Shown: positions 17,672 to 27,786 of the stretch, one piece after another
Position numbering within the stretch: the first letter of the stretch is position 1
Layout of the letters: every line of letters starts with the position of its first letter
Source: Planctomycetaceae bacterium
GTDB taxonomy: Bacteria; Planctomycetota; SZUA-567
Reading direction: 5' to 3'
Assembly (NCBI GenBank): GCA_021205245.1
Contig: JAJPXZ010000183.1
Coordinates: forward strand, 1-39,527
Length of the DNA stretch: 39,527 bases
The notes under the pieces: model-generated
Database searches by the model: none
What the model saw: only the letters and a program-made list of their open reading frames with translations
Told to the model about the DNA's origin: nothing
Program-made: the position numbers and the translations under genes

Positions 17672-18103
17672 ATGGCGACGCCGGATAGCATGCAGGACTT
17701 TCTTCGATATCACCGGCGCATGTTCAGCCTGATGATCGGGGTGTGTTTGGCGGTTTTTGTGGTCTTGCTCGCCGTCATGCGCCATGATATGGCCTGGGCG
17801 GGCGGGTTTGCCGCCGGTGCGGCGGCACAACTCGGAAAATTCGGATTTCTTGATGTCGCTGTCATAAAAAAAATAGCCGCGGAGAAAAAAGACCCGGCCG
17901 TCACCCAACTGAAAGCCATGTTTGTCTCGCTGGCTCTCTTCGGGCTGGCGGTGGTTATTGTGTATACATTTGGCCTCAACGTTTGGACCATGGCAGCCGG
18001 GATTTTTCTGCCCCGGCTTATCTTGCTAGCCGACGCCTATATCCGCCCCAACCCCTTCGGGAACGGGACTGAAGACGCCGCCGCGGAGGAAACCGGTGAG
18101 TAG
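17672..18103 (+). CDS. atpI: ATP synthase subunit I-like membrane protein
   Basis: 143 aa with four hydrophobic segments, first gene before subunit a. Confidence 0.65.
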   Translation: MATPDSMQDFLRYHRRMFSLMIGVCLAVFVVLLAVMRHDMAWAGGFAAGAAAQLGKFGFLDVAVIKKIAAEKKDPAVTQLKAMFVSLALFGLAVVIVYTFGLNVWTMAAGIFLPRLILLADAYIRPNPFGNGTEDAAAEETGE

Positions 18104-19075
18104 TGCGTGTTCGGGAATCGACCCGTCAGGTGTAATCGCCCCCGCATGGGAGCGCCATAACAGAAAATCGGGTGGCCGGTTTCGGACCGCGAGGTCCCGT
18201 CTCGCCGTTGCCGCCCTCCTGCCCTTCGTCGGCGCGACCGCCATGGCGGGGATGGAAGATCCGCCGCCGCTGCAACTCCTCGGCCTATCCTTCAACCACG
18301 CGACCATCATCCACTGCGCCATCGCCGCCGTTGCCGTCTATCTGCTGGTGCGGCTCCTGACCATCAACCTGTCGCGCGAGCACCCCCGGCGCGGCCAGGT
18401 GCTTATCGAGATGATCGTCTCGACCTTCCTTGATTTGACCAAATCCACCATCGGTCCCAATCGCGGCCCCTGGTACCTCCCCTACATCGGCACGCTGTTT
18501 CTGTTCCTCTGGGCGTGCAACATGATGGCCCTGTTCCCAGTGGGGAACTCCCACTTCGGCGGCGAGACCTTTATCGACTACAACTCGAACGGATTGTACG
18601 ACCCGGGTGAACCGTTTATCGACATGAACGGCGACGGCATCCATAACCCGGGATTCCAGCTCCCGGCGTTTGAGGAACCGACCACCGACCTCACCCTGCC
18701 CGCCACCCTGGCCATCATCTTCGTGATTGTCCTCGGCCACGGCTCGGGGATACGCTACAACGGCATACGCGGCTACCTGAAGGAGTACTTCTCGCCCGGC
18801 GGGTTGATCGGCATCGGCATGTTTCCGTTGAATGTCGTCGGCAAGATTGCGGAACTCATCTCCATTTCGTTCCGTATCTTCGGGAATATTTTCGGCGGGG
18901 CGATCATCATGTCCGTCGTCTCCGGACTGCTCTATTACTTCATCGTGCCGATCGGTATGTACGGGTATTTCGCCGTTTTCTGCGGCACCATCCAGGCCTT
19001 CGTCTTCACCATGCTGGCCACCACTTATATTTCCATGGAAGCGGCTGAAGAAGTGGAAGAAGAGGAGACGACCTG

Positions 19076-19076
<1 letters not shown>
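18096..19076 (+). CDS. atpB: F-type ATP synthase subunit a
   Basis: AELISISFRIFGNIFGGAII carries the conserved stator Arg. GTG start overlaps the atpI stop. Confidence 0.95.
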
Positions 19077-20144
<1,068 letters not shown>

Positions 20145-20161: not shown

Positions 20162-21118
20162 GTGCGTAGAGCCTTTATTGCCTTCGGAATCGCCGTCTTC
20201 CTCGTCTACTGCTGGGCCTCCGTGGCTTATCAGAACCAGGTCGACGTGCCTGGCTACACGAACGTCCAGATCGATCTTCTGGGCGGCATGTCGCGGCAAC
20301 GGTGGGAGTCATCCCAGCAGGAGCAGTTCCAGCGCCTGACAGCGCTCGAGAACAAGCGTTACCAATTGCCCCTGGACGCCGAAGGCGATACCAACAGGCC
20401 GCTTACCGCCGACGATTTCGCCAGGGTCATAGCCGGGACTGAGGGCGCTCCCGTCCTGGTGCGCCTGCGTGACCCGGTGGCTATCTACAGCCTACTGTCA
20501 CTCAACTACCTGCTCCGTGATTCGGTGATGGAGTCCCCCGACCCACGCGCCCAGCCCATCTATGTCGGCGGCGGCGCCATCGACAAGGAGATGCTGGACG
20601 ACCTGCGCGAACGGGGCATCCGCACCATTACGGTGAGCGGCCATGCGCCGCCGGTCAATTTCCAGGTCGGCACGAGCCTGATGATTGCGGTCATCTTTTT
20701 CACCCTGGTCGCGGCCTTGAAGCCGGTTCTCTGGCGACCGTTTTTGGCCATGCTGGAAAAGCGCCGACGCGAACTGGAGATCGGGGCCGAAGCTGAACGC
20801 CAGAACCAGCAGGAGGCGATCCGCTTCGAGGAAGAAAAACGGAAGCGCCACGCCGAACTCGACCGGGACATGCAGGCCCTCCGCTTGGACGGCCAACGTG
20901 AAAATGCCCGCGTCGCCAACGGCATCATCCGTGAGGCGCGCGACCGTGAGCAGGAGGTCAAGCTGGCGGGACTCCGGGATATTCGCCTTCAGGCCGACCA
21001 GACCAAAAGTGAACTGGATACCCGGGTGCCGGAATTGGCCGAGTTGATGGCTGCCGCGCTCACCCCCGGCGTCAGCGGCGACACTCTCGATAACGACGCG
21101 GCTCAACAGCCGCAATAG
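20162..21118 (+). CDS. atpF: F-type ATP synthase b-type stator subunit with extra N-terminal TM and ectodomain
   Basis: TM2 followed by KPVLWRPFLAMLEKRRRELEIGAEAERQNQQEAIRFEEEKRKR, matching the b-subunit neck and coiled coil; located between c and delta genes. Confidence 0.8.
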   Translation: MRRAFIAFGIAVFLVYCWASVAYQNQVDVPGYTNVQIDLLGGMSRQRWESSQQEQFQRLTALENKRYQLPLDAEGDTNRPLTADDFARVIAGTEGAPVLVRLRDPVAIYSLLSLNYLLRDSVMESPDPRAQPIYVGGGAIDKEMLDDLRERGIRTITVSGHAPPVNFQVGTSLMIAVIFFTLVAALKPVLWRPFLAMLEKRRRELEIGAEAERQNQQEAIRFEEEKRKRHAELDRDMQALRLDGQRENARVANGIIREARDREQEVKLAGLRDIRLQADQTKSELDTRVPELAELMAAALTPGVSGDTLDNDAAQQPQ

Positions 21119-21129
21119 GGAATACGGAA

Positions 21130-22389
21130 ATGGCAGACAAGCCGGGTTCGTTCAGGGCCACGCCCAAGGTCTCGCGCCACACTATGGTGATGCGCCGGGC
21201 CAAGGACGAGGACGCACGCCGGGTGGCGGAGCGTGAGGACGGCGTTGTCGTCCATGACGCCGGAGCGTCGGCGCGGCTGACCGCACGCGGTGCAATTACC
21301 CAACGCATTGAGCCTGGCTCCAAAAGTGAACGCACCATGAGCGGCCGCCGGGTGGTGGTCGAGCATGAAGGCTCGGTCAGCGGGCGTTATACCCGTCTCT
21401 CGGGCGATCACGCGACTTCGGTGCGGGTAGCGGGCGGCGACACCATCATCCGCTATCAGTCGGGAACGATGGTCATCCGCCGTGGCGCGAAGCGGGTCTC
21501 CCTGCGCAAACAGATTATCTGGCTCTATGCCCTCGGCTACCTGCTGCTTTTCGGCTGTTACATGTTCTTCCTCCTGACCGGCAAAACCAGCATCACCCCG
21601 GAAGGATTCATCGAACAGGCATTTTACATGCGCCACAGTTCGGAGGTGCTTGATCTCGAACGAGCCGCCCTGGAAGCGATGCGCGGCAACCGCACCCCGG
21701 CCGAGATCCGCATGGCCCAGACGTTGCGGTTCTACGACGAGAACCACGACACCGTCCATGTGGAAAAGGGCGACCGGTTGACCCTGCTGACCGCGGCCAA
21801 ACTCGGCCACGCCATCATCGAGGACCAGCAGCGCCCGACCGACCGGCGTGAGTTCCGCGAGCCGTTTGCCATCTACCGGGAAGGCTACCTGTCTACCGTA
21901 AACTGGCCCTATTGGATGACCTTCTACAATGCCCTCGGCTTTTTCCTGCTCCTCGGGTTGTTCCTGTGGCAGCCGATCATGCATTACCTCGGTACCCAGG
22001 GCAAAAAGACGGCGGTGGCGTTACGGAACGCCCGCGACGCCCAGCAACAAGCGGCCGACTACCGCGACCAGTACCGCGCCCTCGCCGGTGAAATAGGCGA
22101 CAAGGGCGAAAAGCTCCGCGAGCACATCGCCGGAACGGTCGAGGCCGACCGCGAGTGCGCCCTTCAGGCAGCCGACCACCAGGCCAAAGCCATCACCGAC
22201 GGCGTCGAGGCGGCACTCCGCAATGAGCGGCAACAATTGACCTGCCGTCTCAGCGCCGAGGCGTCGCTGGCGGCGTGCGATAAAGCCCGCAGCCTTCTGG
22301 AAATCCGTCTTGGCCAGCGGGAACACGACATTGCCATCGACGAACTTATAACCGACATCGCGTCGTTGAAAGAATCCGCCCGCGTGTGA
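21130..22389 (+). CDS. Second b/b'-type stator subunit with N-terminal cytosolic extension, two TM and an ectodomain
   Basis: TM at aa about 128-149 and 261-281, then LWQPIMHYLGTQGKKTAVALRNARDAQQQAADYRDQYRALAGEIG..., b'-like coiled coil; position b, b', delta. Confidence 0.72.
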   Translation: MADKPGSFRATPKVSRHTMVMRRAKDEDARRVAEREDGVVVHDAGASARLTARGAITQRIEPGSKSERTMSGRRVVVEHEGSVSGRYTRLSGDHATSVRVAGGDTIIRYQSGTMVIRRGAKRVSLRKQIIWLYALGYLLLFGCYMFFLLTGKTSITPEGFIEQAFYMRHSSEVLDLERAALEAMRGNRTPAEIRMAQTLRFYDENHDTVHVEKGDRLTLLTAAKLGHAIIEDQQRPTDRREFREPFAIYREGYLSTVNWPYWMTFYNALGFFLLLGLFLWQPIMHYLGTQGKKTAVALRNARDAQQQAADYRDQYRALAGEIGDKGEKLREHIAGTVEADRECALQAADHQAKAITDGVEAALRNERQQLTCRLSAEASLAACDKARSLLEIRLGQREHDIAIDELITDIASLKESARV

Positions 22390-22406
22390 GCGGGCGTGGA
22401 GAAAGC

Positions 22407-23021
22407 ATGGGACAGCAGGACGTCATAGCAAGGCGCTACGCCAAAGGGCTTATCGAAGCCGCCGCCGAGGCAGGCATCGTCGATCGGGTCAGGGATGAAC
22501 TCAAGGCCCTTGCCGACATCGTCGATCCCGCGTCGGGCGCGGTCCACGTCCCCGAATTCATGCGGCTATTGACGTCGCCGACCGTGAGTCTGTCGGATAA
22601 GATCGCCCTGGCGGAGAGAATCGCCTCCGGCTCCGGCTTCGCCGACCAGACATCTTCGTTCCTGAAAGTGCTGATTGAACACGGCCGAGTCGCGCTTCTC
22701 CCCCGTATTGCCCGAGCATTTGCCGAGCAGGCGGGACCGTTGACCGGCATCTATACCGCCACCGTCCATACCGCCCGGCCGCTCCGGGACGAGCAACTGG
22801 ACAGGCTCCGGCACGCCCTCACGGAAGCGCTGGACGCGCGGGTGGTTCTCCATCAGCGGGTCGAACCGGGTCTGTTGGCCGGTGCGAAAATTGTCGTCGG
22901 CGACAAGACCATCGACGGCACGGTGCTGGGAAAATTGGAACGGCTTAGGGAACGATTGCTCACTGAAAGCGCCGCCTTCGTCGGCACCGGTGACGACGCA
23001 CCGTCGGAAAAGAAGAAATAA
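22407..23021 (+). CDS. atpH: F-type ATP synthase delta subunit
   Basis: [14 protein letters not shown]...; C-terminal [22 protein letters not shown]...[33 protein letters not shown]. Confidence 0.92.
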
Positions 23022-23064
23022 CCGTATCCAGCCGCGTACACGGCGGCATTTGAGGAAAAACAGG

Positions 23065-24825
23065 ATGGACAGCAAACTGAATCCGGAGGAAATCTCCTCC
23101 CTCATTCGCCGCGAAATCGACGGCTTTGGTAAAGCGGCCGAAGCGGCAGATACCGGCACCGTTCTCCAGAACGGCGACGGCATTGCCCGCGTGCACGGCC
23201 TGGAAGAAACCCAGGCGGGCGAGTTGCTGGAATTCCCCGGCGGCGTCATGGGCATTGCCCTCAACCTGGAAGAAGATAACATCGGCGCGGTGCTCCTGGG
23301 CGACGGCGCGCACATCAAGGAAGGCGACCCGGTGCGCCGCACCGGGCGCATCTCCCAGGTCGGGGTCGGCTACGGCCTGCTCGGCCGTGTCGTCGACGCC
23401 CTGGGCGCGCCCCAGGACGGCCTCGGTGAGATAAAGGTCGACGAGGAACGGCTGATCGAACGGATTGCGCCCGGCATAGTCCAGCGCCAGCCCGTCGCCG
23501 AACCGTTGCAGACCGGCTTGAAGGCGGTCGACTCCATCACCCCCATCGGGCGCGGCCAGCGCGAACTCATCATCGGCGACCGCCAGACCGGCAAGACGGC
23601 CATCGCCATCGACGCCATCCTGAACCAGAATCGCGGCTGGGACGGCAACCCGGAAAACCTGGACGTCATCTGCATCTATGTCGCCATCGGCCAGAAACGG
23701 TCGACCGTGTCCCGCATCATCGAGACGCTCCGGCGCGAGAAAGCCCTCGGCTACACCATCATCGTCAGCGCCACCGCGTCCGAACCGGCACCGCAGCAAT
23801 ACCTCGCGCCCTATACTGGCGTGTCCATCGCCGAATATTTCATGGATCTCGGCAAACACGTCCTTATCGTCTATGACGACTTGTCCAAGCACGCCTGGGC
23901 CTACCGCGAGATGTCCCTCCTGCTCCGCCGTCCTCCCGGGCGCGAAGCCTATCCCGGCGACGTGTTCTACCTCCACTCGCGCCTGCTTGAGCGGGCCGTC
24001 AAGATGGCGGACAAATACGTGGCTGTGGAAAAATCCATGCCCGACGTTGTCGACCTCGCCGCTGTTGAAGGCCGAAAAGTCTACACCGGCGTACCGGGCC
24101 TGTGGGCGGTTGAGAAGGAGGTAGCGGCGAATCCAGACCTGAAGAAGGCGAAAATTCGCGGCACCGGCGGCTCCATCACCGCCCTCCCCATCATCGAGAC
24201 CCAGGCCGGAGACGTCTCGGCCTATATCCCGACCAACGTTATCTCCATTACCGACGGCCAGATCTTCCTGGAGGCCGACTTGTTCTACTCCGGCGTCCGC
24301 CCGGCGGTCAACGTCGGCATTTCGGTCTCCCGTGTCGGCGGCGCGGCCCAGACCAAGGCTATGAAGTCGGTGTCTGGTTCGCTCAAGCTCGACTTGGCCC
24401 AGTACCGGGAACTCGCCGCTTTCGCGCAGTTCGGGTCCGACCTCGACGCGGTGACGAAACGCCAGCTCGCCCGGGGCGAGCGCCTGGTCGAACTGATGAA
24501 GCAGCAGCAGTATTCGCCCATGACGGTGGCGGAACAGGTGGCGGCGATTTACGCAGGCACCAAGGGCTATCTCGACAACATCCGCACCGACGCCATTGTC
24601 GAATTCGAACAGGCGCTTCTCGACTATCTGCGCGGCAACCGCGCCGACGTCCTCGACAAGATAAACAAAACCGGCGCGCTCGATGTCGACACAGAGGCTG
24701 ATCTTGGCCGCGCTATCCGCGACTATGTCGATGGCTACGCCGGAATGTACGCGGTCGACGGGACCAAACCGGCTCGGGGTCAGGACACGGGCGAGACAGC
24801 GGTTGTCAGGCCGCCCAGGAAATAG
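23065..24825 (+). CDS. atpA: F-type ATP synthase alpha subunit
   Basis: P-loop [65 protein letters not shown]. Start at [14 protein letters not shown]. Confidence 0.97.
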
Positions 24826-24827
24826 CC

Positions 24828-25847
24828 ATGCAAACCCAGGACATCAAACGCCGCATTCGCTCGGTCAAGAGCACCCAGCAAATCACCCGCGCCATGAAGT
24901 TCGTGGCTGCGGCCAAATTGCGGCGCGCCCAGGACCAGATGCTGGCCATGCGCCCCTATGCCGACGCTATCGACGGGCTGGTCAAGCACGTGGCCGAGGA
25001 TCTCGTCGGCGACGAGCACCCGCTCTTCCGGCCCCATGCCGAAGTGAAGCGGGTCGCCTACGTCCTCATTGCCGGTGACCGGGGCCTGGCTGGTGGCTTC
25101 AACTCGAACCTGTTCCGCGCCGTCACCGAGTACGTCCGTTCGAAGCGGGAGGTCGAACCGGTTTTCTTCGCCATCGGCAAGCGCACCATCGGCTATCTCA
25201 GAAAAACCGAATTCCGCATCGTCCGCACCTATCACGACGTGTTTGAAAAACTCTCCTACATCATGGCCGGAGACATCTGCGAAAAGCTGGTGGCGATGAT
25301 GTCGGAGGACGGCGACGACCGCATCGATGAAGCCTATGTCGTCTATAACGAATTCGCCTCCATGCTCACCCAGCGGCCGGTCATCCGCAAACTCCTCCCT
25401 GTCACCGTGGGCGAGATGCTGCAGCGGGAAAAAGCCGCCGACATGCCTGTCGCCGAAGACGGCGATCCTATTCTCGAAGAAATCGTTCTCGACGAAGCGC
25501 CGGACGACATTTTCGACCTTTCCGACGCCGAAGAGGAATTGATGGCAAAGCAGGGTGAGATGGAAGCGGTGGAAAAAGCCGCGCCGGTCCGCCCCATCTA
25601 CGAGTTGCTTCCCGACACCCGCACCGCCTTGGACAAACTCATGTCCAGGCGCATGGCGACAGAGATTTATCGTGGCATGCTGGAGAGCTATGCCGCCGAA
25701 CTCGCTGCTCGGATGTCGGCGATGGACAACGCCACCAATAACGCCGAGGAGATGGTGTCGAACCTCACCCTCGACCTGAACCGCGCCCGCCAGTCGGGCA
25801 TCACCATGGAGCTCCTCGACATCATCGGCGGCTCCAACGCAATTTAA
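24828..25847 (+). CDS. atpG: F-type ATP synthase gamma subunit with acidic insertion
   Basis: N-terminal DIKRRIRSVKSTQQITRAMKFVAAAKLRRAQ and C-terminal ARMSAMDNATNNAEEMVSNLTLDLNRARQSGITMELLDIIGGSNAI. Confidence 0.96.
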   Translation: MQTQDIKRRIRSVKSTQQITRAMKFVAAAKLRRAQDQMLAMRPYADAIDGLVKHVAEDLVGDEHPLFRPHAEVKRVAYVLIAGDRGLAGGFNSNLFRAVTEYVRSKREVEPVFFAIGKRTIGYLRKTEFRIVRTYHDVFEKLSYIMAGDICEKLVAMMSEDGDDRIDEAYVVYNEFASMLTQRPVIRKLLPVTVGEMLQREKAADMPVAEDGDPILEEIVLDEAPDDIFDLSDAEEELMAKQGEMEAVEKAAPVRPIYELLPDTRTALDKLMSRRMATEIYRGMLESYAAELAARMSAMDNATNNAEEMVSNLTLDLNRARQSGITMELLDIIGGSNAI

Positions 25848-25888
25848 CGGTAGTATAAAAATGGGCGGCGCGCCGCCCGGAGGAATGA

Positions 25889-27313
<1,425 letters not shown>

Positions 27314-27321
27314 GGGACAGA

Positions 27322-27786
27322 ATGTCGACAGACAGACGAGTGGCCAGGGGCAATCTCCGCTGCCGGGTGCTGACGCCACGGCGCGCGGTATTCGACGAGT
27401 TGGTGCAGTCGGTCGAACTCAACACCGCCGCCGGCACGCTGGAGGTTTTTGCCCACTTCGAACCCACCATCGCACCGTTGGAGGTGGGGGTAATGAAGGC
27501 GCGGGGCGACGACGGCTCGGAAACGGAACTCGCCATCCACGGCGGCTATATGGACATGAACGGGCAGGTTCTGGTAATATTGGCCGACTCGGCCGAGGTC
27601 GGGAACGAGATCGATGTCGAACGGGCGCGCACCGCGTTGGAGCGGGCTCGCAAAAAATTGGCGGAGGTTACCTCCGACACCGGCGCGGACGTGCAGGTGG
27701 ATATTGACAGGGCCAAGCTGGCTATCCTGCGGGCGTTGACACGTTTGCAAATCGTCGGCGACAGCCCGCCGCCGGGGAGAAATTGA
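27322..27786 (+). CDS. atpC: F-type ATP synthase epsilon subunit
   Basis: Position after beta; LRCRVLTPRRAVFDELVQSVELNTAAGTLEVFAHFEPTIAPLEVGVMKA... and C-terminal helical region. Confidence 0.9.
   Translation: MSTDRRVARGNLRCRVLTPRRAVFDELVQSVELNTAAGTLEVFAHFEPTIAPLEVGVMKARGDDGSETELAIHGGYMDMNGQVLVILADSAEVGNEIDVERARTALERARKKLAEVTSDTGADVQVDIDRAKLAILRALTRLQIVGDSPPPGRN

What the first reader, a model, noticed from the sequence alone, without database searches (positions are those of the whole stretch)
18576..18653. Ca2+-loop-like motifs inserted in the predicted periplasmic TM2-TM3 loop of ATP synthase subunit a
Between ALFPVGN and PTTDLTLP, which matches the E. coli a-subunit periplasmic loop between MDLLP and PSADVNVT, the sequence reads DYNSNGLYDPGEPFIDMNGDGIHNPG. 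This has two D-x-N-x-[ND]-G type loops, as in dockerin/EF-hand-like Ca2+ repeats. Such a motif beside the periplasmic half-channel is unexpected and could tune or stabilise the stator with Ca2+.
Basis: partly seen in the sequence, partly recalled or inferred. Interest (0 to 1): 0.72.

Follow-up and report, generated by a model that had tools for sequence, protein, structure and literature searches.

The report
Calcium-loop pair in ATP synthase subunit a
In one branch of the Planctomycetota, the membrane stator protein of the ATP-making rotary engine carries a conserved extra loop, outside the membrane, shaped like a pair of calcium-binding sites, which suggests that calcium braces the outer face of the motor.

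Summary
Window 18576-18653 encodes DYNSNGLYDPGEPFIDMNGDGIHNPG inside atpB (18096-19076), an F-type ATP synthase subunit a. The first 12 residues have every side-chain ligand position of an EF-hand Ca2+ loop (D1, N3, N5, D9, E12, plus G6). A second loop starts exactly 15 residues later and has D1, N3, D5, G6 and N9 but lacks E12. The insert is present in 17 sampled Planctomycetota genomes from five families. D110, N112, N114, D118, D125 and N127 are invariant in the 16 aligned sequences, and the loop is under purifying selection comparable to the rest of the protein. No solved AtpB matched has it. Homology places it in the periplasm. It matches no EF-hand or dockerin model and no flanking helices are predicted, so it is EF-hand-loop-like, not an EF-hand. 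Similar repeats occur in other extracytoplasmic proteins of the phylum. In the one genus of the same family that clearly lost the loop, the periplasmic domain of the second b subunit is also gone. I judge it most likely a structural Ca2+ clamp on the periplasmic face of Fo, possibly contacting the b subunits. Ca2+ binding itself is untested.

The parts
18096..19076 (+). atpB, F-type ATP synthase subunit a; GTG start overlaps the atpI-like stop; N-terminus looks like a cleavable signal peptide ending ...GATAMAG
   Evidence: PF00119 E 3e-42; Foldseek matches AtpB structures; only atpB in genome
18558..18683 (+). the inserted periplasmic segment GGETFIDYNSNGLYDPGEPFIDMNGDGIHNPGFQLPAFEEPT
   Evidence: alignment with loop-less relatives and PDB sequences
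18576..18611 (+). Ca2+ loop 1, D110-Y-N-S-N-G-L-Y-D-P-G-E121: all side-chain ligand positions 1, 3, 5, 9, 12 of the EF-hand loop
   Evidence: D110, N112, N114, D118 invariant in 16/16; E121 in 15/16 (Asp in L016)
18621..18656 (+). Ca2+ loop 2, D125-M-N-G-D-G-I-H-N-P-G-F136: ligand positions 1, 3, 5, 9 present, position 12 hydrophobic
   Evidence: D125, N127, G135 invariant; Asp/Asn at positions 5 and 9 in all
18564..18566 (+). invariant Glu106 just before loop 1, candidate extra ligand or anchor
   Evidence: invariant in 16/16
18675..18677 (+). invariant Glu143 just after loop 2, before TM3
   Evidence: invariant in 16/16
17672..18103 (+). atpI-like small membrane protein upstream of atpB
   Evidence: 3 predicted TM segments; same position in relatives; no significant Pfam match
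19076..19855 (+). fused subunit c of three hairpins; only the first keeps the ion-binding Glu
   Evidence: three PF00137 stretches; site residues E/Q/Q
19884..20144 (+). single-hairpin subunit c with Glu32/Glu65/Ser66/Thr67/Tyr70-type Na+ site (F. nucleatum numbering)
   Evidence: sequence; motif compared with PMC3692424
20162..21118 (+). b-type subunit (b1): TM, ~150-aa periplasmic domain, TM, cytoplasmic stalk
   Evidence: PF00430 E 2e-4, below its curated cut-off; hydropathy; model with pLDDT ~90 over the domain
21130..22389 (+). b-type subunit (b2): cytoplasmic N-terminal extension, TM, ~120-aa periplasmic domain, TM, stalk
   Evidence: PF00430 E 2e-6; hydropathy
22386..27786 (+). F1 genes: delta, alpha, gamma, beta, epsilon
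   Evidence: delta PF00213 E 7e-41; the delta-alpha-gamma-beta-epsilon order is shared by relatives

Best explanation
The insert is a real, selected, periplasmic metal-binding loop of subunit a. Two EF-hand-like loops in tandem (15-residue period) probably bind Ca2+: loop 1 with a complete ligand set, loop 2 as a weaker or shared site. This would fold the long TM2-TM3 connection into a rigid clamp on the outer face of Fo. Most likely the role is structural: Ca2+, which is more abundant outside the cytoplasm, holds the stator's outer rim and provides a docking surface for the periplasmic domains of the b subunits encoded in the same operon. Shown: sequence, position by homology, conservation, selection, distribution, and one concurrent loss with the b2 domain. 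Inferred: Ca2+ binding, rigidity, docking.
For: Complete EF-loop ligand set in loop 1, with invariant ligands across 16 sequences down to 41% identity. dN in the loop is about the same as in neighbouring parts (window vs L003: dN 0.036, dS 0.58 in the loop; 0.015 and 0.58 in the following 123 residues; L004 vs L005: no amino-acid change in the loop). Position between TM2 and TM3, periplasmic in solved AtpB. Found in five families; closest relatives without it also identified. All loop-bearing genomes whose b gene could be read have a b subunit with a large extracytoplasmic segment (76 to about 175 aa between TM segments); the nearest loop-less families have 61-75 aa, and distant ones with a readable b gene have a single-TM b. 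In genus g5 (G010, G014) the loop is lost and the b2 periplasmic segment is shrunk to 13 residues while b1 keeps its 152. Literature: Dx[DN]xDG loops bind Ca2+ in many folds, are strongly biased to extracytoplasmic proteins and are often structural (PMC3123361).
Against: No ion was modelled; the predicted loop has pLDDT only ~63-71, so ligand geometry is unverified. No curated Ca2+-binding model matches. Loop 2 lacks E12. Loop 1 has Asn rather than Asp at position 5, which may lower affinity. The g5 co-loss is one evolutionary event; G018, G036 and G066 have the loop with only one readable b gene, so the link to b2 is not strict. Contact with b subunits was not tested.
Confidence: 0.6

Rival explanations
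1. Regulatory sensor: Ca2+ (or another metal) binding to the loop changes ion access or stator coupling, so the enzyme responds to external Ca2+.
For: The loop joins TM2 and TM3 on the side from which the ion enters during synthesis; loop 2 lacks E12 and could be a weak, tunable site.
Against: Near-absolute ligand conservation and a high-Ca2+ compartment fit permanent occupancy better; no evidence of gating.
Confidence: 0.15
2. A promiscuous extracytoplasmic repeat of Planctomycetota that landed in a tolerant loop and is kept only because it folds neatly; little effect on the enzyme.
For: A very similar 15-residue repeat occurs in periplasmic loops of AI-2E transporters, in S41-type proteases and in secreted pilin-like proteins of the phylum. 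The loop was lost in g5 and may have been lost in G059.
Against: Purifying selection about as strong as in the core; ligands and flanking Glu106 and Glu143 invariant; always two loops; no expansion in AtpB; the repeat was not found elsewhere in its own genome.
Confidence: 0.15
3. An acidic loop that concentrates Na+ or H+ at the mouth of the periplasmic half-channel without a defined metal site.
For: Acidic segment on the ion entry side; the single-hairpin c carries the two-carboxylate Na+ motif.
Against: Conservation follows EF-loop positions (D1, N3, N5, G6, D9, E12), including neutral Asn and Gly, rather than net charge.
Confidence: 0.07
4. Chance resemblance.
For: Short Asp/Asn/Gly-rich peptide with no significant database model.
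Against: 0 of 200,000 shuffles give the tandem; ligands invariant over four families in the alignment and present in a fifth.
Confidence: 0.03

Closest known systems
F-type ATP synthase subunit a (AtpB; Bacillus PS3 6n2d, mycobacteria 7jg5/8j0s, E. coli 5t4o)
   Same: Fold, TM order, essential Arg, operon context
   Different: The solved ones aligned here have a short TM2-TM3 connection and no Ca2+-type loops; the insert aligns to nothing in them
EF-hand-like Ca2+ site in the A-B loop of SdrD B domains (4jdz, 10ps)
   Same: Same loop logic (DTNKNGxQDxxE) without flanking EF helices; likely high-affinity Ca2+ sites that fix a loop (PMC13174682)
   Different: SdrD is a cell-wall adhesin with Ig-like domains; the profile match is not significant (E 0.9-9)
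Engineered double lanthanide-binding tag on ubiquitin (2ojr; identity of the tag from memory)
   Same: Tandem EF-type loops (GYIDTNNDGWIEGDELYIDTNNDG) with the same 15-residue period
   Different: Designed peptide; match E 6.3, not homology
15-residue Ca2+-loop repeats in planctomycetal AI-2E transporters and S41-type proteases
   Same: Nearly the same unit FxDxNxNGxYDxGEP, also in extracytoplasmic segments
   Different: Different host proteins, copy number up to about seven
Deinococcus S-layer protein SlpA (7zgx)
   Same: Contains YVDTNGNGKKDDGE
   Different: Cell-envelope protein, E 5.5, single units

Membership tests
F-type ATP synthase subunit a | PF00119 match, essential Arg, TM order | tested here: met
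   R209 invariant in 30 sequences
EF-hand | 12-residue loop with ligands at 1, 3, 5, 7, 9, 12 | tested here: met
   loop 1 has all side-chain positions; loop 2 lacks position 12
EF-hand | helix-loop-helix | tested here: not met
   no helices predicted at residues 96-143, only short strands, at modest confidence
EF-hand | match to curated EF-hand profile | tested here: not met
Dockerin type I | match to dockerin profile; paired loop-helix repeats | tested here: not met
   no match, no helices
Dx[DN]xDG calcium-loop class (Rigden et al. 2011) | Dx[DN]xDG motif, typically extracytoplasmic | tested here: met
   DMNGDG exact in loop 2; DYNSNG with Asn at position 5 in loop 1; TM2-TM3 periplasmic by homology
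Dx[DN]xDG calcium-loop class (Rigden et al. 2011) | bound Ca2+ | not testable with these tools
   needs biochemistry or an experimental structure

The most novel reading that the evidence does not exclude
The subunit a loop and the periplasmic domain of the second b subunit form a Ca2+-dependent periplasmic stator clamp, a part of Fo not described for other F-type ATP synthases, in an enzyme with mixed single- and triple-hairpin c subunits and a Na+-type site.
Probability: 0.25. Interest if true: 0.75.

Novelty: new variant of a known kind. Interest (0 to 1): 0.52.

Why it matters
Subunit a is among the most constrained parts of the ATP synthase. A conserved metal-binding insert on its periplasmic side, in a lineage whose b subunits also carry large periplasmic domains, would mean that the outer face of Fo can be built up and braced by Ca2+. 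It gives a simple testable handle (Ca2+ dependence, ligand mutants) on stator stability and ion access. It also shows a portable 15-residue Ca2+-loop repeat being used across unrelated extracytoplasmic proteins of one phylum.

Tried and rejected
Dockerin/EF-hand homology: no Pfam or NCBIfam match to the loop; the best was GEVED at E 0.026, below its cut-off, and the repeats of other proteins gave only sub-cut-off hits. Loop alone against the PDB: nothing; the profile gave only insignificant but apt matches. Structure prediction: good enough for the AtpB fold, too weak in the loop to judge ligand geometry. Fold of the b1 periplasmic domain: no convincing PDB match; top hits were RNA polymerase at E > 0.01 with TM ~0.14. 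My first idea that loop-less G010/G014 had lost F1 and the b genes was wrong: they are on other contigs. Paper searches found no report of a Ca2+ loop in subunit a, though only open-access papers are held.

Full report
The window is one whole contig (39,527 bases, contig C199) of a 4.3-Mb draft genome, 85% complete. Named relatives that carry the insert are all Planctomycetota MAGs. The finding lies in atpB, 18096-19076 (+), in an ATP synthase operon of the order atpI-like, a, fused c, c, b1, b2, delta, alpha, gamma, beta, epsilon. It is the only atpB in the genome. The GTG start overlaps the stop of the upstream gene, and the N-terminus resembles a cleavable signal peptide (sequence).

Observation. 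The peptide DYNSNGLYDPGEPFIDMNGDGIHNPG is encoded exactly at 18576-18653. In mature numbering (Gly1 at 18249), loop 1 is D110-E121. It carries D1, N3, N5, G6, D9 and E12 of the canonical 12-residue EF-hand loop. Loop 2 is D125-F136, with D1, N3, D5, G6 and N9 but a hydrophobic residue at position 12. The two start 15 residues apart. Shuffling AtpB 200,000 times gives a single EF-type loop in 0.019% and the tandem never; the window has it once in six frames.

Conservation. I collected relatives by whole-genome searches. In an even sample of 392 genomes of the phylum, the insert was found in 17: 13 of the window's own family and one each in four others (G017, G018, G036, G066). Across the 16 aligned sequences (relatives 41-96% identical to the window; G066 not included), E106, D110, N112, N114, D118, D125, N127, G135 and E143 are invariant, and E121 is Glu in 15 and Asp in one. 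Synonymous change is high and non-synonymous change low, about as in the neighbouring parts of the protein. The ligand pattern is therefore under selection. A tree without the loop columns puts all loop-bearing sequences in one clade (support 92) with loop-less members inside it; several inner branches are weak. The cleanest reading is one gain, one clear loss (G010/G014, nested with loop-bearing G013 at 100) and possibly a second (G059).

Topology. The profile of the family aligns to solved subunits a on both sides of the insert and leaves it unmatched, between TM2 and TM3. The predicted model matches AtpB structures. In solved bacterial enzymes this connection is on the periplasmic side (established knowledge). 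The Arg-rich segments before TM2 and after TM3 agree with the positive-inside rule. In the model, short strands 101-103 and 136-138 flank the loop, with no helices; loop confidence is modest (pLDDT ~63-71).

What it resembles. No curated family covers it. A profile search of the PDB returned, without significance, SdrD B domains and a ubiquitin entry that begins with a tandem EF-type peptide of the same 15-residue period (2ojr; I recognise this as the double lanthanide-binding tag, from memory). The S-layer protein SlpA holds a similar single unit. Rigden et al. (PMC3123361) show that Dx[DN]xDG loops bind Ca2+ alike in unrelated folds and are strongly biased to extracytoplasmic proteins. A preprint on SdrD describes such sites fixing loops (PMC13174682). 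A very similar unit is common elsewhere in this phylum: in the periplasmic loop of AI-2E family transporters, in S41-type proteases and in secreted pilin-like proteins (only the AI-2E assignment was checked with Pfam, the other two are my reading of the sequences). In the window's own genome it was found only in AtpB.

Context in the enzyme. Both b-type subunits have two TM segments enclosing a periplasmic domain (about 150 and 120 residues). This holds in loop-bearing relatives of the family where the genes are complete; G018, G036 and G066, where I could read only one b gene, have extracytoplasmic segments of about 148-175 residues (in G036 a third hydrophobic stretch makes the count uncertain). 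The nearest loop-less families have 61-75 residues, and distant ones with a readable b gene have ordinary single-TM b subunits. In genus g5, which lost the loop, b1 keeps its 152-residue domain but the two TM segments of b2 are only 13 residues apart. This concurrent loss suggests a physical link between the loop and the b2 domain, but it is a single event, and G018 and G066 show that the loop can exist without a second b gene nearby.

Mechanism. I judge most likely that Ca2+ occupies loop 1 and perhaps loop 2, folding the insert into a rigid clamp on the periplasmic rim of the stator, possibly against the b domains. Shown: sequence, conservation, selection, position by homology, distribution. 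Inferred: Ca2+ binding, rigidity, docking. Whether the loop also affects ion access is open; the single-hairpin c has the Glu32/Glu65/Ser66/Thr67/Tyr70 pattern of the two-carboxylate Na+ rotor of Fusobacterium (PMC3692424), so the enzyme may use Na+.

Verdict. Observation confirmed; interpretation right in outline, not borne out for dockerin/EF-hand membership, untested in function. I found no report of such an insert in subunit a in the open-access library. It is a new variant of a known enzyme.

Noticed in passing
19076-19855: Subunit c fused as three hairpins with the ion-binding Glu only in the first (E/Q/Q), beside a normal single-hairpin c gene; closest solved relative is the F1Fo ATPase c1 subunit 4bem_J (Acetobacterium woodii, from memory). 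G010/G014 have a four-hairpin version with none of the canonical Glu.
   Followed up: partly
19884-20144: Single-hairpin c has the Glu32/Glu65/Ser66/Thr67/Tyr70 pattern of two-carboxylate Na+ rotors, conserved with small changes in the loop-bearing relatives read.
   Followed up: partly
20162-22389: Both b-type subunits have a second TM and a periplasmic domain of about 150 and 120 residues; the b1 domain is predicted confidently (pLDDT ~90) but has no clear PDB fold match.
   Followed up: partly
21130-21510: b2 has a ~128-residue N-terminal extension before its first TM, absent in G011 and G013.
   Followed up: no
L051:3533-4081: G006 carries a second, partial copy of b1 next to the first, and b2 is split into two frames; may be an assembly fault.
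   Followed up: no
L105, L130, L133, L074, L128, L134: A 15-residue Ca2+-loop-like repeat (FxDxNxNGxYDxGEP) recurs in AI-2E transporters, S41-type proteases and secreted pilin-like proteins across Planctomycetota, with no Pfam or NCBIfam model above cut-off found for it.
   Followed up: partly
L017, L040-L049: Other lineages also lengthen this same AtpB connection: G018 (L017) has ten extra residues before the Ca2+ loop, and Chloroflexales have Ala/Glu-rich inserts without Ca2+ loops.
   Followed up: no
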